A stretch of DNA of 64,000 bases from NCBI GenBank assembly GCA_014904985.1, contig MU128985.1, positions 124,001-188,000 on the forward strand. Reading direction: 5' to 3'. The notes below the pieces were generated by a model. It ran no database searches and was not told where the DNA came from. It saw nothing but the letters and a program-made list of their open reading frames with translations. This document shows, piece by piece, positions 15,881-56,813 of this stretch. Origin of the DNA: Hydnum rufescens UP504 (taxonomy: Eukaryota; Basidiomycota; Agaricomycetes; Cantharellales; Hydnaceae). Numbering within the stretch: the first letter of the stretch is position 1; the number at the start of each line of letters is the position of its first letter. A program made the position numbers and the translations under genes.

Positions 15881-16978
15881 TCAGTTTTGAGTCTCCTCCA
15901 CCACATCTCGAGACAAAGGAACAAAGTCTGGAGAGCCAGGTCGGGGCGGAGCAGGCCCAGCCAGGAGCCCGGCATCCCTCGCATCTAGCCAGGCAGTCAC
16001 TTCATCGCGGAGTTTCCACCGTATCGGCTCTATGAGCCTGACACCCTCTGGTCCATCCCATTGCTCGCCTGCAGGTTCGCACCAGCGCCTTCCGTTTCCC
16101 TCGGCCCAATGATTCCAAAAATTGGCGCCATGCGGATTCGGGAATATTTTCGCGCGCTGTGGATCGACATCCCGGACCCCGAGAAGCGCCAGGTGAAGTC
16201 GAACCCTGGCCTCGTCACCTGTCATGTAAAGGCATTCTTCCCAATCGGTATCGGACTCGTCCTCTCGCAGGCCGGCATGCCCAAAGTCAATGATACACGC
16301 CTTGGTGGGTTTTTCTGGTTTCGCCGGGAAGAAAATGATATTATCATCGCGGAGGTCATTGTGAATGACACCATGCACTCCGATGGCATGGACAGTCGTG
16401 ATTAAGGCGCGCGCTAAAACCCTGGAAATAGTTGTTGGGTCCACAGTAGCGAGAGTCTCGCCTGGAATATACTCCAGAAGGAGGACGTTTAGTACGATGG
16501 GACGTTGAATGTCAGGGTGAAGAGTTCCGAAGCCATAGCAGCGTGGAATACCGTCTCCTTGCAGGTGTCGCAACCGGGTGTACGCCGCTAGCTCCGATTG
16601 GAATGCAAGCTGCATCGCGCGATAGGAATACTCTTCCCAAAGTACCTCGTCAAAGTCAAGAAAATTCATCTCATCATAGTCATCCTCACGATCCCCCCGT
16701 ATCACCGCTGCTCGACGCTCCGCAGCAGCGAGTTCATTCTCCAGGGACCACGGATGATTAGAGTCGCTGGAGCGCGTTAGACGGTCTTCGATAAAACGTG
16801 GGTCAAAAATCTTTAGGATCATAGGCGAGGGCGTTCCATTAGGAGCGCCATGAACATCTACAAGGAAGACCTGACTTTTTGTAAACGGCAAGAAGGGTTT
16901 GATCACTGTAGCGGTGCACTCCACAAACTCATTACGACCACTCCAGTTCACAGCGATAGACAGGGGATTCTGGTCCAT
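15881..16978 (-). CDS. protein kinase-like protein
   Basis: Single long exon of 365 residues from the in-frame ATG at 16976-16978 (the frame is open to 17023 without ATG). Kinase-fold landmarks, numbered from this ATG: a beta-3 lysine in PMILKIF (about K56), a hinge-like LLLEYIPGETL (about 166-176), a catalytic loop HNDLRDDNIIF (about 206-216, Asp208 and Asn213) and a metal-binding IIDFGHA (Asp231). There is a long acidic insert before the helix-C region. The layout resembles small fungal kinase or aminoglycoside-phosphotransferase-like proteins with unknown substrates. A coding-like stretch upstream (17066-17266) is probably its true N-terminus, separated by an in-frame TGA. It lies between the two copies of the F-box 3'-end duplication. 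Confidence 0.72.
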   Translation of the reverse strand: MDQNPLSIAVNWSGRNEFVECTATVIKPFLPFTKSQVFLVDVHGAPNGTPSPMILKIFDPRFIEDRLTRSSDSNHPWSLENELAAAERRAAVIRGDREDDYDEMNFLDFDEVLWEEYSYRAMQLAFQSELAAYTRLRHLQGDGIPRCYGFGTLHPDIQRPIVLNVLLLEYIPGETLATVDPTTISRVLARALITTVHAIGVHGVIHNDLRDDNIIFFPAKPEKPTKACIIDFGHAGLREDESDTDWEECLYMTGDEARVRLHLALLGVRDVDPQRAKIFPNPHGANFWNHWAEGNGRRWCEPAGEQWDGPEGVRLIEPIRWKLRDEVTAWLDARDAGLLAGPAPPRPGSPDFVPLSRDVVEETQN

Positions 16979-17065
16979 GGGATGCCGGGAGAGAGCGTTG
17001 TGAGGAAGCAGTTCCGAAGGCACGCTTTCGCTCCCATTGAGGTCGACCGGCGTGTGCCGAGAAAT

Positions 17066-22517: not shown

Positions 22518-22705
22518 ATTCACACCCCAGCTTCGTTTCTTGATGTTGTACTGTACCTCTACCTTGTACTACCCGGGATCCGAGCAAAAAGCCGCATTGG
22601 CATTCAGAGCGTGTCAACCGCCTCCGGAACCAGATTTTAACTTCCACCCTCGACAGCGACACCACCAGGGCGACGCAAGGCAAGCTCACGTTTGGTCTCT
22701 AACGC

Positions 22706-25700
22706 ATGCATCTCAATGGAACCTCTGCGCACAAGGTGTTAGAAAATCCCACTGCACTCAACGCTATGTCCTCGCTCCCCAATGGGACCACAAAGGCTCT
22801 CACAAACGCGGTTCTAGCTGCCCAAACCACCAATGATGCAGCCGGGGCACCTGTGCAGGTCATCAATGAGGAGAAAAAATTCACGCCCGACCTTAGCGGG
22901 TATATTTCAAGCTGGGGACTCGCTGAAGCTGGCTTCAATTACGACGTCGTGGCTGTTTTTGGCTCCCAGTCTACAGGCAAAAGTACGCTACTAAACCGTC
23001 TATTTGGTACATCCTTCGACGTCATGGATGAAACGCACCGGCGGCAAACGACCAAGGGCATATGGATGTGCCGAGGCAAGGGAATGAACGTCATGGTCAT
23101 GGACGTCGAAGGCACAGATGGGCGTGAACGCGGCGAGGACCAAGATTTTGAAAGAAAATCAGCTTTGTTTTCCCTCGCTAGCTCGGAGGTCCTTATTGTC
23201 AATATCTGGGAGCATCAAATTGGTCTCTATCAGGGTGCCAATATGGGTCTTCTCAAGACCGTCTTCGAAGTTAATTTAGGCCTGTTCGGGAATCGTGGGT
23301 CTGAAGGGTATGTGTGATTATCGCCGAGGCTGAACATGATCCTGACTGGTTTATACACATCCACGTGGATGCAGCATGTCTCAACGCACCCTACTCCTAT
23401 TCGTTATTCGCGACCATGTTGGGTCAACCCCACTTGCAAACCTCGCCCAAACACTCCAAGCCGATCTTACCAAAATATGGGACTCGCTTTCTAAACCTCC
23501 AGAGCTCGCTGACCGCCATCTCACTGACTATTTCGACCTTTCATTCACTGGTCTTCCTCACAAAGTCCTTCTACCAGAGAAATTTGAGGCTGAGGTCGCC
23601 GAACTTAGGAAACGGTTCCTGCACCGTGAACGAGATGATTACGTGTTCAAACCTGCGTACCACAAACGGATTCCGGCTGATGGAGTGGCACACTATATGG
23701 AAGGCATCTGGGTATGCCTTCTTGGAACCCCTGTATCCGGTTTCATGAACTAAATTACTTTCTCCTTGTACCCATGTTATGCTATGATAGGAACAAGTGC
23801 AAACAAATAAGGACCTTGACCTTCCAACTCAGCAAGAACTTCTCGCCCAGTTCCGCTGCGACGAGATTGCCACAGTCGCGCTTGAGCAATTTACAGCACA
23901 AGCTAAGCCACTGCGCAAACCGATCGAGAGTGGACATGTGCTCGAGGCCCTAGGCAAATCCATGCGATCCTGGAAAAATGAGGCATTAGGTCTACCGTTT
24001 CAAATTCCCTCATCCCTATTCGTTTATTCACATTTGGCCACCTTTTGCAGCTCGATTCGATCGCGATGCATCTCGATATCACCAAGGTGTCTATCATCGG
24101 AAACGCGGGGATCTGGTCGTGCAGCTTCATGCCACACTTGGCCCGCTATTCCTCGGACAATTGAAAAACCTCCACAAACTCGCGCTTGCGAACTTCAAAC
24201 GAGAGGTCGTTGAGGGTGTCAAGGGCGATGGATATGATTTTGGTGAGCTTGTAAGAAAGAGTCGGGAAAAGAATGAGGGCGAGTTCGTTGCTGGTGCCCT
24301 TGGTGGGTTTCTCCCCGTCGTTTGATACAATTTCATAATCTGACCGACGAGAGGACTACAGAGGGTTTGGTGGAGGGCACGGATTGGACATACGAAGAAG
24401 AACTCGATCTTCTCAGACAGGAAATCACTGTCATTGCGGACCAATGTCGCGCAGACGAAACAAAGAAGATGATTAACCATATCGAAGTGCGTCTTCGGTG
24501 TCTCTTGGGAATCAAGTGCTACAGCTCAAGTCTTTCATTTAGCGCACGTTGAAGCGGCAGATTGCAGAGCCGATAGAGCTGGCTCTCAACAAGGCGGTGC
24601 CAACTATGTGGGACAGTGTTCTTAGAGTCTTCACCGATACCCTTGGCAAAGCCACCGCAACATATCTAATAAAAGCCAAAAGTGCGCGTATCTCTACGCA
24701 CCGAGTTGCCTCGGGTATCTAACCTTGGGTCCCATTTCCGCGCAGGTTTCAATTGCACTGAAGAAGAAAACACTGCATCACTCAACATCTTACGACGGCG
24801 CGCATGGCAAGCCTTGCGAGCGAAAGTGGACGAACAAACCTCCGACACTAGTATTCTCGCCAAATTAAGATCCACTTTCGAGGATCGCTTCCGCTATGAC
24901 GAAAATGGGGTCCCGCGGGTATGGAAGCCCGACGATGATATAGATGCCGCCTTTCGCAAGGCTCGGGACCAGGTAAATTCCCTCGTTAATGTTGAAGACG
25001 CTGATACCAACACAGTCTGCATCGTAGACTTTGGAACTTGTCCCGCTGTATGCAAAGATTCAACCCGTCGACACATCACTAGAAGTCAGCCTCCCATCAG
25101 ATGGTGGAGATGAGCTTCTCGCTGGGGAAGGTGAATTCGACTTCGCTGCTACACTTGTCGTTTTCTCCGAGTCGAAGCAGGTCGACTTGGTGGCCAAGTT
25201 CCGGCGAGACGCAGACGCCTACTATGTCGAGGCCAAGCGATCAATCGTCAGCAGTGTTTCCCAGATCCCAATGTGGATATATGCCCTCCTCGTCGTCCTC
25301 GGCTGGAACGAGGCAGTGGCGATCCTTTTCAATCCCATCTATTTCGCTGTACTTCTCACTACCCTGGCTTCTGCGTGAGTCTCTCCCCTTCGTTCCCTCA
25401 ACGGACTCGTGTCTCAATGGGTTGCCCTCCAGGTACATGATTGTAAAACTTCATCTCGTGGGACCTCTAATGAATATCACCCAAGCCATTGGCGGCGAGG
25501 TATGTGGCATACTCTCATTCCTACCTTCCCTTGCTCTAGGTAGCAAACACCATTTACTCCCCGATAGGTGCGACGACAAGCAACAAATCGTCTACGAGAG
25601 CACTTCAGCGAGCCTCAACTCGCGTCACCAGTCACCGTCCGGAATCGGGATTCTACTCGGTCAGACGACACTGACGATGAGTTTCGGGTGCGCACAGAGC

Positions 25701-43805: not shown

Positions 43806-44681
43806 TCATTCTGACAACTCTAGGTTGGGGAATACAGATGTCAAATATTGCATTGAAGAAGACAATTGAAAATCCTCACGTCCGCGGAAGGGGGACAAGC
43901 CATCAGTATCTTTTCGCTCCAGGAAGTTGGCAATGAGCGTTAAGCCATACGTGTCGTTTTCTGGGAGAGAGATGATGGGCGCAGGATCCATAGTCCACCC
44001 GAAGGTGCCACCCTTTCGAAACAACCCTATCTCCTGCCCGATTGGCATGCAGGAGTCCAAGTCGATGATCACTGCATTTCCGTCGTCATCGAGCATAATA
44101 TTGGTGGGGTTAATGTCATTGTGCACGAGATTAAGGGTGGTGTGCAAGAAGTGCAATCCTTTTGAAATGCCATCAAGAACCAGATGAGGATCCACCGTAC
44201 AGTCTCCGTTCTGAACAGCATCGTGCAGCGAGTGTCCATACTTCTTTAAACATAATGCGGTAAAATAGCCACCGTCACGCACACATCCATAATATACGCA
44301 TATATTTGGATGACGGTGCTGTTTGAGGATTTCGTAGATTTCCGCCTCGGGCTCGATGTCCACACCAGGTGCCCGGTTCGGACCATCACTACCAGCGCCT
44401 TCGGGATTGTAATTGTCAGGCAAGAATATGCGTGTCATTTTCATATAAGAGTCGGCGGGGATTGGACAGGGTGACTCGGTTAGAGATGCACCCCAACGTC
44501 CCCTGAAAATCTTCATGCAGATGGGACGTGGAGTAGGAAGGCTGTCGAGGTCGAATGACCCGTCCCTCGAGGAGTGACGGAGCTGGTAATAATTGCCGTC
44601 ATCCTTCCATACAATGATAGTATGGTCAAACCCATATGTTTGTTCGTTCCACGCTTCATAGTTTTTGACGAGTTGTCGCAT
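43806..44681 (-). CDS. protein kinase-like protein, DFG variant
   Basis: Single exon, 291 residues, ATG at 44679-44681. Kinase landmarks: ICMKIF with the beta-3 Lys57, EAEIYEILKQHRHPNICVYY (Glu114 as helix-C glutamate), LHDAVQNGD, KGLHFLHTTLNLVHNDINPT with catalytic Asp189 and Asn194, IIDLDS (Asp207; DLD in place of DFG) and KGGTFGWTMDPAP as activation segment. ENDTYGLTLIANFLERK looks like the helix-F DxYGL region. No glycine-rich loop is obvious; the N-terminal 50 residues are atypical. Small fungal kinase-like proteins of this type are of unknown function. The family retains its catalytic residues, so activity is possible. Confidence 0.78.
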   Translation of the reverse strand: MRQLVKNYEAWNEQTYGFDHTIIVWKDDGNYYQLRHSSRDGSFDLDSLPTPRPICMKIFRGRWGASLTESPCPIPADSYMKMTRIFLPDNYNPEGAGSDGPNRAPGVDIEPEAEIYEILKQHRHPNICVYYGCVRDGGYFTALCLKKYGHSLHDAVQNGDCTVDPHLVLDGISKGLHFLHTTLNLVHNDINPTNIMLDDDGNAVIIDLDSCMPIGQEIGLFRKGGTFGWTMDPAPIISLPENDTYGLTLIANFLERKDTDGLSPFRGREDFQLSSSMQYLTSVFPNLELSE

Positions 44682-45113
44682 CGCTGTGGTGGAGGTCGTC
44701 TAGTATACCCCGGAAAGATTGACCAAATTAACAGAATGAAAGTAGGAGGTATTGACCCACCAGCAAGGAGGCATTCCTGTTGGATGGCTGGTGCAATTTC
44801 TAAGTCTGCATACATAGTACGTAGGTCCGAAGTCCGAGTCACTATTACGTAACATATTCAAATCATTAACGGATGTATATTTGACTTTCAGGCCCATCTG
44901 GTAAATATGGGAGACTAAGCGCGGGGGAAGCCACAGGACAAACTGAGACTGAGACAGATCCTAGATGTATTCCAATATTCACCATGACCGTGAAACAAGA
45001 TAGTATACATTTACAAGTGTGATGTTACATGCGGAGGAGTTTATCATAGCCTTGTCTACTCTCCATTCAGATCAGCCAGTCGTCGACCTCTGTTCTTTGC
45101 CAAAAAAAAAGCA
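44682..45113. other. intergenic
   Basis: Upstream of the kinase-like gene. No gene recognised. Confidence 0.45.
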
Positions 45114-45419: not shown

Positions 45420-47108
45420 GCCGCTTCTTATCAGAAAGGTGTTAGCAAACTATCTACTCAAGCATCTAGCCTCTACATAGAGGCTGGGAGCCGCTTGAGT
45501 GCTCTTAAAATATAGATAAGGAGTTTGTAAGGGCCTGACCTATGACGGGGTATGGTGCACGAGCAGGATCAAGTCACAACTTCCACGCTCTCGGCGCTTG
45601 GAACGCAATTGATCACGTAATCTCAGACCTTGGCCACCCACTTGCAGAAGACGAGTCCTAGCACTGGTCAATCCTTGAATGTGAATTCCAACACAGATTA
45701 CCAATCTCTGACTGACCCTCCTATCCAGTTGGAATTCCAGTCTGCGCATATTTAGCTTACTTGGGCTGCCAAAATAGGCTAGATTGGGTTGAGGATAAGA
45801 TATAGAACACTCGCTAGGCATAGGCATAAATATAACGACTAAGGCCGACTGTGCGGCAGAGTCCTCTACCAGCTCGTCGTTTGCGTTCTTTTTGTTGCAG
45901 AGAAACACATGTAGATCTATTTGGGCAAGTAATCAGAAAGAAAAAACCTGCGTCTTCCCTTCATCTCTGTTTGGTAGCAATGTCAGTATGTCTCCCAAAT
46001 AAGGAATCCGTCTGCTTACAACCGACCAAAGGCCTTTCCATTTTATCGTCATTATCTGATCCCGTGGATTCTCTCACGCAGCATTCGAATTCCTCTTTAT
46101 CGATGAGAAGCCTTTAGGAGTTGGGAAAACAGGGGTTGAGGCGGGAGTTGCTGTTTTTCTCAAGGATTATTCATCTGTTAAACGCACCATAAATGGCTTG
46201 TTTTTCGGCGGGGCTGATGTTGAATTTTTCAGTGTTTGTTAGTTCTGCGGCGCGCTACATGGAACAGGGGATAAACCATATGGCAAGGAGGTCGGAAAAC
46301 GGAAATACGCAGCAAGTCTGAAACAAATGACAAGGGAGGAGGATAACGAAGAGATGACAGAACAGCGGAGGGTCCTGGAATGCAGCACTATCACGTGGGT
46401 GGACGCGCACTTTTCTCAGAGGTCCCGTCTATTTTAGGCCGCCAACACCCGCTAGGTAGCGGGAGTTGCTCATAAGCCTGTCGGTTGTTGTCCTCGGAAC
46501 ACCAGCGATGATTCCCCCCAATCCCCTTCCCTCACGTACCGGTGACCTCTTATAATTTGTCCGACGCTCCTCAACGAGCTTGACATTCCATGAAACGAAA
46601 GCAGGCGCATAACATAAACAGAGATTGCATTGTCTCGTATCTCGATGTCGCTAGTGCAGGTACAGACTTGGTGTAAACGTGGATTTATCTATCGCTATCA
46701 TGTGAATTGATTGCAGGGGTGGCCGAGGCCTCCCGGGACCCTCCGCTATCCGCTTTATGTGCGATGATCAACTGTTGGGGTTCACGTGATCGATGGGGAT
46801 AGAAATTTCAGCCAGGTGTGCTCCTGAGGGCAAATCATCGCAGGAAGCCATGCGGCCAGGAGTCTATGTATTATTGTACGTGTGCGAAGCAAGAATGAAA
46901 ACACATCAGAAAGTGCAGTGGAGATGAATGAAAACGAGAGCGCCCGAGTAAAATAGAAGCACATGTGTAAATACATCGTATGGTCATGGCAGGAGTAACA
47001 ATGAGGTATCAGTCGATCCGTTCCTTGTAGTATGGAGCACTTCGTTGCAGTCCTTGTATCCAAGGCCTCGTGTACTTCCTGTGTAAGGATGGGCCGCGTT
47101 CACCCTAT
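45420..47108. other. gene-free stretch
   Basis: No gene is supported. A 122-codon minus frame at 45540-45908 and shorter frames show no domain. The right end is the 3' flank of the giant repeat gene. Confidence 0.45.
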
Positions 47109-50100
47109 TCAAATATGGAGAATAATTGTAAAGGAGGACACTTGGATAGAACGGATGACAGGATGACAAACCAAGAAGGGCCCCAAGATCGAAAAGAATA
47201 GAGATAGGACCAAGAGAACGGTGAATCGAAGCAGGTCATGAAGGCGCGGAAATACGACCTCGCTGAGGAAGAACCAGAAGAGGTAGGTGAGCTCGAACGT
47301 CATGTCGATAAGGAAGCCGCCGATAATGCTAAAGAAGCCAGTTGATTGTGGGACGGTTTGTATTGTGCTTGCGAGCTCGATCTGCGGGAAAAAGTAGTAC
47401 AACAGGGATACAAACCCGTGAGTGAGGTTCTTCCTGGGTGGAGGACGGGGTTGGAGCCGATGGGTATCGTGGGTTCGGGAGGAAGGTGGGGACCCTGGTG
47501 TAGGACGAGCGGGGTTTGGGGAACGTACAAGGGTATCTGTGTCGATGGTAAGCTCACGCGGCAGGGCATGGAGCTGTGCAATTTCATCCTCGGCTTCGAC
47601 ACCGGGTCCACTGGCGGGGGCAGAAGCCAGGCCGATATCACTGATAGGAGGAGAAGGATAGCCGGTAGTATCAGAGGTGCCAGAGGTCAGTGGCTTATCG
47701 AGCTTGGCCGGTTCGAAGCCATCTATTGTGAGATAGACAATTGTCAGTATTCAGGATCGGAAGCGGACGATATACGATATCACTTGCCATTGAGAGCCAG
47801 TTCACTGTTCGTGGGGGTCAGTGACATACGTGGTGTCTCCACTTTCACTTCGCTAGTGCCCAAGTTCTCCACGCTTACAATTTCCGGTGAAGTAACAGTG
47901 TCTACATGACCGGAAAAAGCCATCAAAATTCCATCAGGGAGGGTGGAGAGCAGTATCACTCACCGGTCATGAGAGGGGGAGCGGATGAAGGTTGAGAGAG
48001 ATCTGGCGAAATTGCTTCCGCCGACGTTGTGACAGTCACGTGCTGCTGCACCGCTGCTCCCTCCTCTTTCGGTTCCTCGGGTTCGGCTTCCCCTGAAATT
48101 TCAGTCGCATCGTCCACATCCAAGGTAGTGGCCACAGGAGATGCAAATCCGACATGTCGTACCGGAGCCTCCGGAGCGGAGGAGCCCGCTAGGGATAGAG
48201 AAGAACCCAAGGCCAGCGGAGGCGCGTCATTATCAACTTGAATAGGATCTGCTGGCACCGACCACTCTATGGCTTCGACATTGATTACAGGGCGAGTAAG
48301 AATGTCACCGTGATCTGGCGATTGAACAGCACCCAAATCTACTGGCACTGGTGCGTTCGACGATGGCTCTGTTTCCTGGACACTCGTCTCTTCGTAGGCT
48401 GAAGTATGCAGGATTTTAGCATCCAATGGTGCAACAGGAGGGGGCCGATTTGAGTCAGTATGGAGGGGAATTTCTGCGTCGGAGTCCGAGTGTGCCCTAT
48501 CGTCTGTGTTCAGTGGCGCGATAGGAATGGCCTCGTCCGCGGGAGGATGAGACGTGTTGAGTTCTGGATCGGCTGTGAAATGGGCGGGCACACCAGTCTC
48601 TGCTCCATGTGATCCAGCCATGAGGCCATCCTCTTTGTGATCTGGGGTGGTCAGGACTTCGGGAACAAGGCTGTCCAATGCAACGTGCTCCAGATTAACC
48701 CCCGTTTCAGATGTCCCAGGAACCGCAATATTATCTTCTTCGGCGTCAGCGCCGGTCGGTATTGCCTCGATTGCATCGACAGTATGACGATCCGGGGTCC
48801 CTGAGGTTTCAGGATTCAGTTCGTCCGACGCAGTGTGGGATGCGTGGATTTCTGGGCCAGGTGCAAACTGCCCGACATGTTCCGGTGACTCAGCGGCTGC
48901 CCCTGCGCTTAGGTCAACCTGCAGAGGTTCTCTGTCTTTCACCTCTGGTTCAGAAGGTCCAGACAATGCAATCCTATCTTCTTCGGCACCTGTGCTGGGT
49001 GGCGTCGCCTCGGCCACATCAGTTTCCGGGGGAGTCGATTCAACTGAAGTTTCCGGAACGGGCCCGTGCGACACAATCTCGTGTTCGTGAAAGTCTGGAT
49101 CAGGATCGATCTGCATGACCGGTTTTGGTTCTTCCACAGCTGACCCTTGGTTTTGAGGAATTAGAACAGTTCCCGTGTCCACTGGTGCAATAGAAACGGA
49201 TTCATCCATTCCAGGGGCGGGCGAATCAACCGCTGGGGGAGGGTCAAGCGGAGTAACGATATCGTCTCCGGCGTGCACGCCGGGGACTAGAGCCTCGGCC
49301 ACATCGCTAACTCGAGGGTCCAACGGATATGAAGTTTCGGAGACTTGTCCATCTGACGCAGTGTGGCCCAGACCGTCTTCTGCGTTAGCTGGTCCGGACG
49401 GGACAATCTCAGACTTTTCGATAGGTGCACTGAGCTGCGGGGCGGGGGTAGATCGGTAACATCAGCGTCCCAATGAGTTGGAGTCTCAAGAACAGGTCGC
49501 TCAGACGCAGTAGGGGTCGGGTCGTCAGGGGGTCCAGGCGTGATGGCCATAGGCTCTTCGTTGGATGCACTAGGCAGTGGGCTTCGGCCACATCGGCCAC
49601 ATTGGGTCACTAGGAGCTGGAGCCGGATCGTTCTCTGATTCAGGGTCTACGGGCGTGATGGCCCTAGGCTGTTCAATGGGTACACTGTGCACCGGGGCCC
49701 CAGCTACATCGATGCCGGGAGTATCAAGAACGGGTCTCTCCGAAGAAGTAGGGTCAGAGCGACCTCTGGCTCGGGCAGTCCGGGTGTGACAGCCTTGGGT
49801 TGGTCGGGTGCACTGGACACTGATGTTTCAGACACATCAATATCAGGGGTATCAAGAATGGGCCCCTCAGAGACAGTAGGGGCCAGACTCTCCTCTGGTT
49901 CAGGGCCTCCGGGCGTAACAGCCTTAGGCTGTTCCACAGGTGCGCTGGGCACCGGGGCCTCCGCCACATTGATAACGGGAGTATCAAGAATGGGTCTCTC
50001 AGAGGGAGGGATCAAAGTGTCGTCTGGTTGAGGCAGTCCGGGTGCGATGGCCCTAGGTTCGTCGGGTGCACTGGGCGGTGAGGTTTCGGCCACATCGGCA

Positions 50101-53100
50101 ACAGGAGTACCAAGAATGGTTCCCACAGACACAGAGGGGGGGAGACTGCTCTCTGGTTCAGGGCCTCTGGGCGTAACGGCCCTAGGGTGTTCGACGGATG
50201 CACTGGGCACTGGTGCCTCAGCCCCATCGGTAACAGGAGTATCAACAATAGGTGTCTCAGACGCAGCAGGGGTCAGATCAGACAGTCCGGGTGCGACGGT
50301 CCTGTGCTGTTCGTCAGGTGCACTGGGCAGTAAGGCTTCGGCAACATCGATAGCAGGAGTATCAAGAATGGGTCCCTCGGATGCAGCAGGGCCCAGACCG
50401 TCCTCCGGCCCAGGCGATCCGGACGTGATGGTCCTCGGCTGGTCCTCGGATGCACTGGGTAGTGGGGCGTCAACCGCATCGGTAACAAGAGTATCAGTAT
50501 CAAGAACAGCAGCGGGGGTTAGATGGTCCTCTGCTTCAGGCAGTCCCGGCGTGATGGCCCTAGGCTGTTCAACAGGTGCACTAGAAGGGAGGCCTCAGCC
50601 ACGTCGATGACTGGAGATCCAGTATCAATTGGAGTATCAAGAACGGGTATCTCAGACGCAGCAGGGGCCAGACTGCTCCCTAGTTCAGGCGGTCTGGGTG
50701 TGACGGCCCAGCCTTTTCGATAGAGGTACTGGAAGGTGAAACTTCAGCCACCCCGATAATTGGTGCTTCCCTATCAATTAAAGTATCAAGGATGGGCCTT
50801 TCAGACACAGTAAGGTTGAAGACTTACTCTGGTTCAGATGGTCTAGACCCGACGGCCCTAGGCTGTTCAACAGATGCACTGGAAGGCGAGGCCTTAGCCA
50901 CCTCGATAACTGGAGCCTGCCTGTTAATTGAACTATTAATAATAGGTATTTCAGACGCAGCAGGGGTGAGATAATACTCTGATTCAGGCGGTCCGGACGT
51001 GACTGCCCTAGATTGTTCGTCGGATGCACTGGGTGCCGGGGCTTCAACCACATCAGCAACCAGAGTGTCCTGGAGAGTTGGACTATCAAGAACAAGAACG
51101 GGTCCCTCAGACGCAACGGGGGCCACATCGCCCTCTGGTTTGGGATCCTCTGGGGCGACACCCCTACTAGGCTGTTCTTTGGATGCGCCATTCACTAAAG
51201 CCTCGGCCGCATCGATAGCAGGTGTATCCAAATTAATTGCAGAATCAAGAACGGGTAGATCAGACGCAACAGGGGCCAGATTGACCTCTGGTTCAGGTGG
51301 TCCGGACACGAGGACCCTTGGCAGTTCATCGGATGGAGTGGAAAGTGAGACTTCAGCCACGTTGATAACTGGAGCCTCCCTATCAATTGGAGTATTAAGA
51401 ACGGGGCTGTCAGGCATAGTAGGGTTGAGATCTTACTCTGGTTTAGGGGGTTTGGGCGTGGCGGCCTCGACAGGTGCACCGGGAGGTGAGGCCTTAGCCG
51501 CATCGATAAGTGGAGCCTCGCTATTAATTGGAGTGTTAAGAATGGGTCTTTCAGACGCAGTAGGGGTGAGATCGTACTCTGGTTCAGGCGGTGTGGGCAT
51601 GACGGCCCTAGGCTGTTCGTCGGATGCACTGGGTGCCTGGGCTTCAACCACATCGGCAACCAGAGTGTCCCGGAGAGTTGGACTATCAAGAACGGGTCTC
51701 TCAGACGCAGCAGGGGCCACATCACCCTCTGGTTCAGGGCCTTCGAGGGCGACACCCCTACTAGGTTGTTCTTTGGATGCACTGGGCACTGGAGTCTCGG
51801 TTGCATCGACAACGGGCGCATCCGCATTGATTGGAGAATCAAGAACTGGTCTCTCAGATGCAACAGGGGCCAAATTCTCCTCTGCTTCAAGGGACCCGGT
51901 CCCGATGTCCCTAGGCTGTTCATCGGATACAGTGGAAGGTGAGGCTTTAGCCACGTCGATAACTGGAGGTTCCCTATCAATTGGAATATCAAGAAGGGGT
52001 CTCTCAGACGTAGCAGGGGTCACTTTGGAATCTGGTTCAGGCATGACGACCCTAGGCTGTTCATCGGATGCGATGGGCGGTGGGACCTTAAACACATCGG
52101 CAGGAGCGTCCAAATTAGTTGGACCGTCAAGAACGGATCGTTCAGACGCAACCGGGGGCTGATTGTCCTCTGGATCAGGTGATCCAGACGCAACGGCCCT
52201 AGGCTGTTCTTTGGATGCATTGGGAGCCAGGGCCTCGGCGGCATCGACAACTGGAGGTTCCGTATCAATTGGAGAATCAAGAACGGGTCTCTCAGACGCG
52301 GCAGGGGCCACATTGTACTCTGGTTCAGGCGGTCCGGACGTGACGACCCTCGGCTGGTCCTCGGATGCACTGGGCAGTGGGGCTTCCACCGCATCGGTAA
52401 CAAGAGTATCAGTATCAAGAACAGCAGCGGGGGCTAGATGGTCCTCTGCTTCAGGCGGTCCCGGCGTGATGGCCCTAGGCTGTTCGACAGGTGCACTAGA
52501 AGGGGAGACCTCAGCCACGTCGATGACTGGAGATCCCCTATCAACTGGAGTATCAAGAACGGGTATCTCAGACGCAGTAGGGCCAGACTGTTCTCTGGTT
52601 CAGGCGGTCTGGGTGTGACGGCCCCAGCCTTTTCGATAGAGGTACTGGAAGGTGAAACTTCGGCCACCTCAATAATTGGAGCTTCCCTATCAATTAAAGT
52701 GTCAAGGATGGGCCCCTCAGACGCAGCAAGGGTGAGGGCTTACTCTGGTTCAGGTGGTCCAGACGCGACGGCCCTAGGCTGCTTGACAGATGCACTGGAA
52801 GGGGAGGCCTTAGCCACATCGATAACTGGAGCTTCCCTATTAACTGAAGTATAAATAATAGGTATTTCAGACGCAGCAGGGGTGAGATCGTACTCTGATC
52901 CAGGCGGTCTGGGCGTGACTGTCCTAAATTGTTCGTCGGATGAACTGGGTGCCGCTTCGACCAGATCAGCAACCAGAGTGTCCTGGAGAGTTGGACTATC
53001 AAGAGCGAGTCCCTCAGACACAACAGGGGCCACATCGCCCTCTGGTTTAGGATCCTCGGGGGCGACACCCCTACTAGGCTGTTCTTTGGATGCGCCATTC

Positions 53101-56100
53101 ACCGAAGCCTCGGCTGCATCGATAGCAGGTGAATCCAAATTAATTGCAGAATCAAGAACGGGTAGATCAGACGCAACAGGGGCCAGATTGACCTCTGGTT
53201 CAGGTGGTCCGGACTCGAGGACCCCAGGCTGCTCGTCGGATGCAGTGGAAAGTGAGACTTCAGCCACGTTGACAACTGGAGCTTCCCTATCAATTGGAGT
53301 ATTTAGAACGAGGCTCTCAGGCACAGAAGGGTTGAGATCTTACTCTGGTTTAGGGGGCTCGGGCGTGACGGCCTCGACAGGTGCACCGGGAGGTGAGACC
53401 TTAGCCGCATTGATAACTGGAGCCTCCAGATTAATTGGAGTATTAAGAATGGGTCTTTCAGACGCAGTAGGGGTGAGATCGTAGACTGGTTCAGGCGGTC
53501 CGGCCCTAGGTGATTCGTCGGACGCACTGGGTTCCGGGGCTTCAACCACATCAGTAACCAGAGTGTCCCGGAGAGTTGGAGTATCAATATCAAGAACGGG
53601 TCTCTCAGACGCAACGGGGGCCACATCACCCTCTGGTTCAGGAGCTTCGAGGGCGACACCCCTACTAGGTTGTTCTTTGGATGCACCGTTCACTGAGGCC
53701 TCGGCCGCATCGTCAACAAACGTATCCAAATTAATTGGAGAATCAAGAACTGGTCTCTCAGATGCAACAGGGGCCAGATTCTCCTCTGGTTCAGGGGGTC
53801 CGGATATGACGTCCCTAGGCCGTTCATCGGATACAGTGGAAGGTGAGGCTTTAGCCACGCCGATAGCTGGAGCTTCCCTATCAGTTGGAATATCAAGAAC
53901 GGGTCTCTCAGACGCAGCAGGGGTCACTTTGGACTCTGATTCAGGTATGACGACCCTAGGCTGTTCATCGGATGCACTGGGCGGTGGGACCATAAACATA
54001 TCGGCAGAAGGAGCGTCCAAATTAGTTGGACCGTCAAGAACGGGTCGCTCAGACACAACCGGGGGCTGATTGTCCTCTGGATCGGGTGATCCAGACGTGA
54101 TGGCCCTAGGCTGTTCTTTGGATGCATTGGGTGCTGGGGCCTCGGCCGCATCCACAACTGGAGGTTCCCTATAAATTGGAGAATCAAGAACGGGTCCCTC
54201 AGACGCAGCAGGGGTCACATTGTACTCTGGTTCAGGCAGTCTGGGCGTGACGACCGTGGAGTGTTCGTCGGATGCGCTGGACGATGGGGCCTTAAGCACT
54301 TCGACAGCAGGAGCGTCCAAATTAGCTGGACTGTCAAGAACGGATCCCTCAGACGCAACCGGGGCCTGATTGTCGTCTGGATCAGGTAGTACAGGTGTGA
54401 CGACCCTAAGCTGTTCGTCGGATGCAATGGCCTTAAGCACATTGGCAACAGGAGCATCCAACTTAGTTGGACTGTCAAGAACGGGTCGCTCAAACGCAAT
54501 GGGGGCCTGATTGTCCTCTAGATTAGGTGGTCCAGACGTGACGACCCTAGGCGGTTCGGCGGATGCACTAGGCACTGGGTCCCCCGCCACATCACCAACA
54601 GAAGCATCCCGAGGAATTGGACCGTTAAGAACAGGTTTCTCAGAGGTAGCGAGTTGCAGATCAGTCTCTGGGTCCGACGGTCTAGGCGTGACCGTGCCAA
54701 TGCTAGGCTCTTCGACGTACGTAGTGGCCGCGGGGACCTCGAGCACATCGGAAATAGGATCTGATGAAGGTTCAGGGACGTGCTCCTCTGATGTAGGGTG
54801 ATGTGGGCCCATGTCCCCTGGCTCCTCTACAATCAGGGGAGTTTCTGCGTCAAGTGGTATGGCGGGACCGAGTTCAGACGATTCAATTTGGTGCTGATCA
54901 ACCTCTGGTTCATGCGGTCCAGACACGTTAATGCTAGCCTGCTCGACTGGTCCACTGGGCAGTGCAGTCTCAACCGGAGCAAGAGCGCGAGATTCCGAGG
55001 CAGTTGATGCCTCCACATCGTGGGGAGCCTCCTCGAAGGCGGGGGGGACAGACGGGACAGACGACGATCCCGTGTCTCTTTCAGTGCCAACCGTTAACGG
55101 TTCTGCAGCAGGCTGCACCGACACCGGTTCCTCGACTATTGGAGATGGTCCGACGGCGATTTCTGCATCGACTGGGGTCTCCTCGATGGTAGCAAGCGTG
55201 GAAAGAGGGGACGATGAAAGCAAAGGCAGGGAAGATGGAACGTGTTGGGTCGTGATATCATCAGATGCCAATGCCGAGGTGGCATAATCAGCTTTGTCGG
55301 AGGGGACGTTCACCGGATGGTCAGTGTCCTCCTTCACATCGGATGTACCATTAACGACGGACTTGACTGGGCTCTCAGAGGGCGCAGGGAGGCCCGTCGA
55401 TATCAGAGACGTTGGAATGTGTTTGCTCGTAATATCCTCCGACGTATCATCCGGTTCTTTGATTGCGGTGACTGCGCCGGCCCAGCATTATCATTGCGAC
55501 TAATCTCAGGAAGAACCTCTTCAGGAAGCGTAGGCTCGACCTTGTCCAGTGCGACCGAGGACGAAATCACAGGACTTGAAAGAACAGTGAGAGATATTGA
55601 CGAAGGAGAATCGTTCAGAGTCGGTGGTTCTTTTGTTTCTGACCTATTCGATTCATCGTGGAAAGGGGATGTGATCCCGGGGAGCAAGGTATCAACCAGA
55701 CCATGTGCTGTCTGAAAGAGAACAGTCCCAGGTGACTGCGTTTTCAGGCCAAGACCATTAGACACCAAGGGGTTCTCCTTCCACGTGACAGCATTGTCTG
55801 GCGGGTTGGTCCTTGTCGAATTACTGGTCGAGATGCTCGGCTTCGAGGGTATATCTGCATCCTTCCGGGTTCTAGCCTCGCCAAGCCCGAGAGCCGCCAT
55901 GGTAGAAGTCACGGGCCGAAACAAGTTGGGAACCGGTGCACGGGGACTCTCTACCTGGGACTGGGACTGGGGTCGAGGTCCAAGTCCCAATGAAAATTGC
56001 GCCACACCTCCCGCCGCCCCCTTTCCAGGAACGATGGATGGAGGCGCGGGGATATGGAAAGACGTTTGTCGTCGTACAGGGCTCACTCCAGCAGACGATT

Positions 56101-56813
56101 GAGGAGATAAAGGTCGCCCAGAAGCGGATTCATCTGCGTCGCGAGGCGCACCGATCTGTGAACCGGCGCTGCTGGTGCTGAATTTGCGGTTTTGGGTGCG
56201 GGGAACCGGTGGGGGTGGTTCAAAAGGTCCGCGTTGCAATGGAACTTGAGAAGAATTCTCTTCTCGAGGAACGTAATCAGGTTGGACGAGAGGTGAGTAT
56301 GGTGATCCTTGGTCCTCGGAACGAGCAGGGAGACCGAATGATACAGGTCTGACCCTCGATGATGGTCGGCCGATGGAAGGAGACGATGGGGACTCCAGAG
56401 CTAATGGAGAGGTCGGAGTATAGCCTGTAGCGACAGACATCGGTGGGGAGGTGGGAGGGAAGGACACTGGTCCTCCAGATCCTAACCCGTATGGTGGTGT
56501 GTACGGTACATTGTTTGGATCATAGGATGGGATCAGAGGCCTTGTAGGACTGGTGTTAGCTGGTGGCAATGGCGGAGATGCATTTGCAATTGCAGGAGGT
56601 GCGCTGCTAGCACCCACTGGCGAACGTGCAGGGCCTGCAGACCGAGAGAGACCATAAAGATATATGCAAGAACGAAGAATGAACCTACTCACCTGCTACA
56701 GCTGACTGGGGAACAAAATCAATAGATGATGTCCGAGTCCTCGATCGCAAGTATCGTCGTGGCGAGCTGATCGAGTTGAACGGGGAGCTGGAGGGCGGGG
56801 GAGGCACAGACAT
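47109..56813 (-). CDS. giant repetitive membrane protein
   Basis: Function unknown; nearly 10 kb and about 3,000 residues. Exon 1 (ATG 56811-56813) is MSVPPPPSSSPFNSISSPRR, then an intron (GTGAGT...CTGCAG) into a Pro/Ser-rich region (RSPVGASSAPPAIANAS; YTPPYGLGSGGPVSFPPTSP). The centre holds about 36 acidic, Pro-rich repeats typified by SERPVLDSP..APVVDVAEA..PSASDEQPRAVT..PPEPE. Then comes a non-repetitive acidic part (48-49.3 kb) and two short introns near 47940 and 47820. The C-terminus has two membrane segments, IIGGFLIDMTFELTYLFWFF and LLRFTVLLVLSLFFSILGPF, ending SSFTIILHI at 47109. The frame is broken by single missing C/G bases near 55485, 52585, 50707, 50583, 49755, 49607, 49583 and 49445; restoring repeat consensus at each puts the frame back. 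Four 57-bp internal introns are proposed. Long plus-strand frames here are mirrors of the repeat. Likely a membrane-anchored, disordered protein. Confidence 0.72.
50771..50827 (-). other. proposed 57-bp intron within repeat (4)
   Basis: GTAAGTCTTC...TTGATAG. Counterpart of the one at 52687 in the other higher-order copy; the donor matches the GTAAGT consensus. Confidence 0.6.
51380..51436 (-). other. proposed 57-bp intron within repeat (3)
   Basis: GTAAGATCTC...TTGATAG. Counterpart of the one at 53287 in the other higher-order copy. Confidence 0.6.
52687..52743 (-). other. proposed 57-bp intron within repeat (2)
   Basis: GTAAGCCCTC...TTGATAG. Same length, phase and internal TAA as the other three; splicing joins PEPE to EAPII in frame. 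Confidence 0.6.
53287..53343 (-). other. proposed 57-bp intron within repeat (1)
   Basis: GTAAGATCTC...TTGATAG, phase 2. Contains an in-frame TAA at its donor. Splicing joins PKPE to EAPVVNVAEV in frame. The matching segment is exonic in most other repeat units. Confidence 0.6.

What the first reader, a model, noticed from the sequence alone, without database searches (positions are those of the whole stretch)
50771..53343. Four candidate introns born inside a protein-coding repeat
In four repeat units of the giant minus-strand gene, the codon after PEPE/PKPE is TAA; paralogous units have TAC or TAT there. The change turns GAGTAC... into GAGTAAG, a consensus 5' splice donor. Exactly 57 nt later each has TTGATAG, a plausible acceptor that also exists as ordinary coding sequence (IDRE) in other units. 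57 is a multiple of 3 and the junction restores GAG GAA GCT. The four come as two pairs in the two 1.91-kb higher-order copies, so two origins predate that duplication, and all splice features were kept. This looks like intronization of repeat sequence, with the stop codon hidden in the intron.
Basis: partly seen in the sequence, partly recalled or inferred. Interest (0 to 1): 0.82.

Follow-up and report, generated by a model that had tools for sequence, protein, structure and literature searches.

The report
Coding repeat caught turning into introns
In a hedgehog-mushroom gene built of repeated coding units, seven units carry the same 57-letter stretch that looks like an intron, and in four of them a stop codon would end the protein unless that stretch is cut out of the RNA; this may show intron birth step by step inside one gene, but no RNA evidence has been seen yet.

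Summary
In detail: four GAGTAAG(N45)TTGATAGGGA segments on the minus strand, none in shuffles. The genome is very probably Hydnum rufescens UP504.

Scored against 61 introns inferred in the same genome, the four lie at the 39th to 82nd percentile. Only seven 48-70-nt in-frame pairs in the array score that well; all are this 57-nt segment: four with TAA, three with TAC. So TAA did not create the donor: GTACG is a commoner donor (10 of 61) than GTAAG (1 of 61). None of 24 paralogous units has either signal in register. Coding changes probably made donor and acceptor first; the stop came later. One origin or two is unresolved.

For: no other in-frame stop, five 3n indels between the 1.9-kb copies, stops only at donor codons. 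Against: seven apparent frameshifts, weak dN/dS, no RNA. Best reading: intronization multiplied by repeat duplication, about 0.6. New variant of a known kind.

The parts
53287..53343 (-). 57-nt intron candidate 1 (GTAAGA...TTGATAG) holding TAA at 53342-53340
   Evidence: (39th percentile of 61 sampled introns)
52687..52743 (-). 57-nt intron candidate 2 (GTAAGC...TTGATAG) holding TAA at 52742-52740
   Evidence: (46th percentile)
51380..51436 (-). 57-nt intron candidate 3 (GTAAGA...TTGATAG) holding TAA at 51435-51433; removed in deposited model P0004
   Evidence: (49th percentile)
50771..50827 (-). 57-nt intron candidate 4 (GTAAGT...TTGATAG) holding TAA at 50826-50824; removed in deposited model P0004
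   Evidence: (82nd percentile; a 99-nt acceptor scores slightly higher)
54169..54225 (-). homologous splice-like 57-nt segment without a stop (GTACAA...TTATAG)
   Evidence: score 12.43
52837..52893 (-). homologous splice-like 57-nt segment without a stop (GTACGA...TTAATAG)
   Evidence: score 14.81
51521..51577 (-). homologous splice-like 57-nt segment without a stop (GTACGA...TTAATAG); kept as coding in P0004
   Evidence: score 11.81
52321..54227 (-). higher-order copy A (13 units, 1907 bp)
50406..52320 (-). higher-order copy B (13 units, 1915 bp)
49700..54680 (-). array of about 150-bp coding units (about 50 codons, PEPE...ASERPVLDTPIDREAP type); ends approximate
55403..56813 (-). N-terminal part; deposited model P0001 (BS47DRAFT_1055596, 450 aa) with one intron, 56692-56635
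50680..52044 (-). deposited model P0004 (BS47DRAFT_1055862, 416 aa) that splices candidates 3 and 4
47012..49209 (-). C-terminal part; deposited model P0005 (BS47DRAFT_1055700, 668 aa), hydrophobic stretch near its C-terminus (by eye)

Best explanation
The four 57-nt segments are young spliceosomal introns made from coding repeat sequence (intronization). Inferred steps: (1) in one subfamily of the 150-bp coding units, two missense changes of the type GAC-to-TAC and TGG-to-AGG made a GT donor and an AG acceptor 57 nt apart and in frame, so the segment could be left in or spliced out without loss of frame; (2) in one or two of these units TAC became TAA (still a working donor, GTAAG), so only the spliced form gives full-length protein; (3) the 1.91-kb tandem duplication doubled the stop-bearing units to four. 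The three splice-like TAC units are the uncommitted stage. Shown: sequence anatomy, splice scores, absence of both signals from the 24 paralogous units tallied, persistence through the duplication. Inferred: splicing itself, the direction of the changes and the order of steps.
For: Candidate scores lie at the 39th, 46th, 49th and 82nd percentile of 61 introns inferred in conserved genes of this genome; median length there is 65 nt. Only seven 3n GT..AG pairs of 48-70 nt in the array 55050-50525 reach 11.2; all seven are this segment, 4 with TAA and 3 without. The C88a ORF (3567 nt) has 0 and 5272 nt of tubulin and EF1A coding sequence has 0. Of 319 one-step nonsense changes (31 of 34 units, the four TAA units counted in their TAC state), 32 fall in the seven segments and 14 at their donor codon; all four stops are at the donor codon. 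The decayed paralog C88b has 10 stops in 722 codons, 7 of 10 aligned to CAA, CAG or TGG codons of C88a. Indels between the 1.9-kb copies are 3, 6, 9, 6 and 3 nt plus three 1-nt ones, with no stop other than the TAAs. TAA segments differ more between twin copies (13 of 114) than homologous segments of other units (40 of 602), p = 0.08. Splice competence (score 11.2 or more) is kept by both twins in 2 of 2 TAA pairs but in 0 of 3 non-TAA pairs with a competent member (too few to test). Deposited model P0004 splices candidates 3 and 4 exactly. The gene's C-terminal end is matched by P0006 (252 of 292 residues identical), on a 1048-bp JGI contig that reads straight through the three intron positions, as a cDNA would.
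Against: No RNA was seen. Seven apparent frameshifts break the gene, six of them 3' of the second TAA, while the eight loci kept for intron sampling (about 2,380 matched codons) gave one frameshift call, at an intron edge in L054. dN/dS between the 1.9-kb copies is 0.72 and not below chance by permutation (p about 0.1); no new stops has chance 0.10-0.13. The ratio of amino-acid-changing to silent codons is no higher in TAA segments (10:3) than in homologous segments (27:9), p = 1.0. GTAAG is 1 of 61 donors. For candidate 4 a 99-nt acceptor scores slightly higher than the 57-nt one. JGI's model of the decayed paralog C88b holds 10 introns, 6 at or below the 10th percentile, so a predicted intron is weak evidence. 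My gene-structure script also chose all four, but it forbids stops, so it had to hide them. No deposited protein of 366-1163 aa covering the first two segments was found.
Confidence: 0.6

Rival explanations
1. The gene is decaying. The four TAAs are one or two ordinary nonsense mutations copied by the repeat duplication, the frameshifts are real, and the splice-like context is chance plus a gene finder's wish to dodge stops.
For: Seven apparent frameshifts, six of them 3' of the second TAA; exon dN/dS 0.72, not significant; paralogs C88b and C225 look decayed; JGI's predictor places weak introns in C88b.
Against: No other in-frame stop beside seven frameshifts, while C88b has 10 stops beside 16 frameshifts. 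All four stops are at the donor codon (14 of 319 one-step sites) of segments that score like introns. Five 3n indels. C-terminal end matched by P0006. But paralog C88c also shows frameshifts without stops (3 and 0 in 619 codons), so this pattern is not unique.
Confidence: 0.25
2. The segments are optionally spliced in all seven units (exitron-like). In the TAA units retention gives truncated proteins or nonsense-mediated decay, so splicing efficiency sets protein length or dose.
For: Three stop-free units score as well as the TAA units; 57 nt keeps frame in all.
Against: No isoform data; splice signals of the three stop-free units are weakened or lost in their twins, which suggests no upkeep there; P0004 keeps the 51577 segment as coding.
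Confidence: 0.1
3. The stops are read through or are sequencing errors.
For: The assembly may hold indel errors; the source paper says only that genomes were made with Illumina, PacBio or both (passages).
Against: Four positions carry the same TAA, shared between 91% identical copies; an indel error mode does not make TAC-to-TAA. No read-through signal was sought.
Confidence: 0.03

Closest known systems
Intronization hypothesis (Catania and Lynch 2008, PMC2586383; passages seen)
   Same: Predicts short new introns, length a multiple of three, holding a premature stop, from coding sequence, with an alternatively spliced phase
   Different: Here the candidates sit in a coding tandem repeat, stop-free and stop-bearing copies stand side by side, and duplication multiplied them; splicing is not shown
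Intronization in Cryptococcus (Roy 2009, PMC2740785; abstract and passages seen)
   Same: Basidiomycete; new introns from exonic sequence by new boundaries; five cases among 28,256 introns, four of the five also seen unspliced in cDNA
   Different: Those are cDNA-supported; none is described as a repeat unit in the passages seen
Repeat-expansion introns of Cryptococcus CNN00420 (Sharpton 2008, PMC2395259; passages seen)
   Same: Near-identical introns multiplied inside one gene by repeat expansion
   Different: There the introns are EST-supported and no origin from coding sequence is described in the passages seen; here the intron candidate itself comes from the coding unit
Exitrons (definition recalled; one search gave only a listing)
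   Same: In-frame splice-competent stretch inside a coding exon
   Different: Four of the seven carry a stop, so retention does not give the full protein

Membership tests
Spliceosomal intron (GT-AG) | GT donor and AG acceptor at intron-like distance with home-genome strength | tested here: met
   all four at the 39th-82nd percentile of 61 introns inferred by alignment
Spliceosomal intron (GT-AG) | branch-point-like site (YTNAY) upstream of the acceptor | tested here: inconclusive
   read by eye: YTNAY about 15 nt upstream in three of four (TTGAC, TTAAT, TTGAT), CTAAA in the first; 35 of 41 sampled introns have one
Spliceosomal intron (GT-AG) | removed from mature RNA | not testable with these tools
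   no read or cDNA data for this strain; deposited model P0004 is a prediction
Intronization (Catania-Lynch type) | homologous sequence is ordinary coding sequence elsewhere | tested here: met
   other window units read through it; none of 24 paralog units tallied has GT or AG in register (36 paralog hits, the 12 weaker than E 1e-20 left out)
Intronization (Catania-Lynch type) | length a multiple of three with a stop inside the segment | tested here: met
   57 nt, TAA in each of four
Intronization (Catania-Lynch type) | faster evolution than comparable coding sequence | tested here: inconclusive
   13 of 114 against 40 of 602 in homologous segments, p = 0.08; no difference in replacement to silent ratio, p = 1.0
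Pseudogene | random stops and frameshifts | tested here: inconclusive
   seven apparent frameshifts but no stop outside the four donor codons

The most novel reading that the evidence does not exclude
One gene family holds a full intronization series: 24 paralogous units elsewhere in the genome without either splice signal in register, three units of this gene with both signals and no stop, and four units in which a TAA makes splicing obligatory, the last seven in one transcript and multiplied by repeat duplication, so that the effect of the stop on splicing and on upkeep of splice sites can be read within one RNA.
Probability: 0.4. Interest if true: 0.75.

Novelty: new variant of a known kind. 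Interest (0 to 1): 0.52.

Why it matters
How introns first arise is an old open question, and intronization cases are rare (five among 28,256 introns in Cryptococcus, PMC2740785). A tandem array with stop-free and stop-bearing copies of the same splice-like segment would give internal controls in one transcript: same promoter, neighbours and cell. Ordinary RNA-seq of Hydnum would decide it. It would also show that duplication of a coding repeat can multiply a home-made intron.

Tried and rejected
TAA as donor-making change: rejected, since GTACG is used more (10 of 61) than GTAAG (1 of 61) and TAC units score equally.

Two separate origins: not shown; the unit tree does not join the two pairs, but one clade is not rejected (AU p = 0.31). 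The neighbouring three units are duplicated at 81-83% identity in copy A (77-90% in copy B) while the stop units are at 72% in both.

A longer intron (about 206-248 nt, worked out by hand) from donors 2 and 4 that would also hide nearby frameshifts: noted because the three frameshifts inside the 1.9-kb copies lie within 250 nt of those donors. The gene-structure script allowed introns up to 300 nt with a length cost beyond 80 nt and chose the 57-nt ones. Not pursued.

Selection by dN/dS and stop counts between copies: in the expected direction, not significant.

RNA families: no match in the window at gathering threshold nor in 49-57 kb at E 0.1. Pfam: no match for the four proteins given; NCBIfam: none for three.

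Literature searches. In these listings I saw no report of intronization inside a coding tandem repeat with stop-bearing and stop-free copies; five papers were opened (passages or abstract only), the others were seen as listings.
Full report
What the locus is. The window lies in a 63-Mb genome in 539 contigs. The N-terminal part of the gene matches protein BS47DRAFT_1055596 of Hydnum rufescens UP504 (P0001, 98% identity; 99.5% and 100% in its two exons), so the organism is very probably that ectomycorrhizal mushroom. The minus-strand gene runs from about 56.8 kb down to 47.0 kb: a Ser/Pro-rich N-terminal part, an array of about 150-bp coding units (about 50 codons each), and a C-terminal part with a hydrophobic stretch. 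I infer one gene, by its likeness to the open frame of paralog C88a; the public annotation holds at least three separate models here, P0001, P0004 and P0005. Paralogous arrays lie on C88 (three places) and C418. The first C88 copy has an open frame of 1189 codons and, by my reading of translated motifs, is followed by a kinase-like domain (not tested by a family search).

The observation. Exactly four places in the window fit GAGTAAG, 45 nt, TTGATAGGGA, all on the minus strand in the array; 100 shuffles give none even with 2 mismatches allowed. They form two pairs in two 1.9-kb copies that are 91.4% identical. Removing the 57 nt keeps the frame in each. Small errors in the finding: two of four junctions are not GAG GAA GCT, and most other units do not have TAC or TAT at this codon (5 and 1 of 34).

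Are these credible introns for this fungus? I aligned template proteins to loci of the same genome and took 61 introns from eight loci: four of nine tried (three tubulin-type, EF1A) and four of nine tried (Arf-type). Left out were poor or less certain alignments, among them L045 (eight introns, 36% identity), L069, L074 and L075. The introns are inferred by alignment, not from RNA; donors GTAAG and GTGAG had a small bonus, which works against my finding that GTAAG is rare. Median length is 65 nt, 70% lie between 50 and 70 nt; donors GTGAG 11, GTACG 10, GTATG 7, GTGCG 5, GTAAG 1; acceptors CAG 29, TAG 26. On donor and acceptor matrices from them the four candidates score at the 39th, 46th, 49th and 82nd percentile. 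In the array from 55050 to 50525 only seven in-frame pairs of 48-70 nt reach 11.2, and all seven are the same 57-nt segment: the four with TAA and three without (54225, 52893, 51577). The 3567-nt open frame of paralog C88a and 5272 nt of tubulin and EF1A coding sequence have none. With lengths up to 100 nt allowed, other pairs score as high; the best of 993 is a 99-nt pair from candidate 4's own donor.

What this changes. The step from TAC to TAA did not make the donor: GTACG is a commoner donor here than GTAAG, and three TAC units score as well. In 24 paralogous units (of 36 paralog hits; the 12 weaker than E 1e-20 were left out) the codon is GAC or GAT in 18 and the acceptor codon TGG in 20; none has GT or AG in register (two decayed C88b units have TAG there, one base out of register). 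The likely order is therefore: missense changes make GT and AG in one subfamily of units, and the stop comes after. Within the window array, 9 of 34 units have both signals, 4 have one, 21 have neither; shared descent of units inflates this association.

Are the stops random? The array offers 319 one-step nonsense changes in 31 of 34 units (three units of odd length skipped, the four stop units counted in their TAC state, one of these over its first 60 nt only); 32 fall in the seven segments and 14 at their donor codons. An earlier count found 307 in 30 units, 7 of them making a GTRAG donor. All four stops are at the donor codon: chance about 0.04 if there was one origin and about 0.002 if two, ignoring mutation bias. 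The tree does not settle one or two (AU p = 0.31). As a control, the decayed paralog C88b has 10 stops and 16 frameshifts in 722 codons, with 7 of 10 stops aligned to CAA, CAG or TGG codons; C88c has 0 stops and 3 frameshifts in 619 codons.

Was the sequence still coding after the stops arose? The stops are shared by both 1.9-kb copies, so they most simply predate the duplication. Since then the copies gained indels of 3, 6, 9, 6 and 3 nt and three 1-nt deletions in short homopolymers, and no other stop. Exon dN/dS is 0.72 and inside the segments 1.07; permutation does not reject neutrality for the exons (p about 0.1), and absence of new stops has chance 0.10-0.13. TAA segments differ at 13 of 114 sites between twins, homologous segments of other units at 40 of 602 (p = 0.08), but the replacement to silent ratio is the same (10:3 and 27:9, p = 1.0). 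In both TAA pairs both twins keep strong splice signals; in the three non-TAA pairs with a strong member the twin has lost or weakened them. Each of these is weak alone; most, not all, point the same way.

Annotation and expression. Deposited model P0004 (BS47DRAFT_1055862) removes segments 3 and 4 exactly and keeps the stop-free 51577 segment as coding. That is a prediction: the model for decayed C88b (P0002) contains 10 introns, 6 at or below the 10th percentile of the home introns. My own structure script places all four segments as introns too, but it may not cross a stop, and at its default setting it also bridged the frameshifts with poorly scoring introns. A 665-aa query upstream of segment 1 found no model covering segments 1 and 2 among proteins of 366-1163 aa. 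Protein P0006 comes from a 1048-bp JGI contig and reads straight through three intron positions of the C-terminal end, with 252 of 292 residues identical. I infer that it is a cDNA from a relative, so the gene's 3' end is probably expressed and spliced there. It does not reach the array.

The case against. Seven apparent frameshifts break the frame near 55477, 52590, 50705, 50590, 49750, 49600 and 49450 (my reading). The eight loci kept for intron sampling gave one frameshift call, at an intron edge in L054; two discarded poor alignments, L043 and L047, gave one call each. So the assembly is not generally bad, and the gene may be in early decay. Against decay stands the lack of ordinary stops and the C-terminal end shared with P0006. 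Accurate resequencing would decide. The source paper says only that genomes were made from Illumina, PacBio or both (PMC7550596, passages).

Comparison with the known. The picture fits the intronization hypothesis (PMC2586383, passages), which predicts short, stop-bearing, 3n introns with an optional phase. Roy found five cases in Cryptococcus (PMC2740785, abstract and passages). Sharpton and colleagues described introns multiplied by repeat expansion in gene CNN00420 (PMC2395259, passages). A 2025 study of animal exons assigns few indels within exons to intronization, 2.0% of deletions (PMC12457776, passages). What is new here, if splicing is shown, is the combination: origin in a coding repeat, committed and uncommitted copies side by side, and multiplication by duplication.

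Verdict. Observation confirmed; interpretation partly supported; mechanism about 0.6 likely; interest 0.52 because the decisive RNA test is missing and the kind is known.

Noticed in passing
window 47787-47723 (-): Probable GC-AG intron (GCAAGT...CAATAG, 65 nt): P0005 and P0006 both read NDGFE across it, which fits this boundary. Read by eye.
   Followed up: partly
G000:C88 about 22.6-26.2 kb (L036), 37.0-38.8 kb (L038): Paralogous arrays; the first is in a 1189-codon open frame followed by sequence that looks like a kinase (motifs recalled, no family search). The second has three frameshifts and no stop in 619 codons.
   Followed up: partly
G000:C88 about 29.4-31.7 kb (L037) and C225 about 22.3-23.4 kb (L040): Decayed paralogs of the array (10 stops, 16 frameshifts in 722 codons) and of the C-terminal part (four frameshift calls and stops).
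   Followed up: partly
P0006: 292-aa protein on a 1048-bp JGI contig, 252 of 292 residues identical to the spliced C-terminal end: probably metatranscriptome cDNA of a related Hydnum (inferred).
   Followed up: partly
L074 (C57) and L075 (C244): 98.2% identical 3.3-kb stretches on two contigs, with seven gaps, six of them 1 nt; possibly two haplotypes kept in the assembly.
   Followed up: no
window 22703-25110 (+): Exons that look like a Sey1/atlastin-type GTPase (recalled motifs, not tested).
   Followed up: no
window 15884-17065 (-) and 43809-44699 (-): Open frames that look kinase-like (HNDLRDDN, HNDINPTN motifs, recalled, not tested).
   Followed up: no
window 52588-52527 (-): A GTCTGG...CTCCAG pair of 62 nt would bridge the frameshift near 52590 in frame; moderate score only.
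   Followed up: partly
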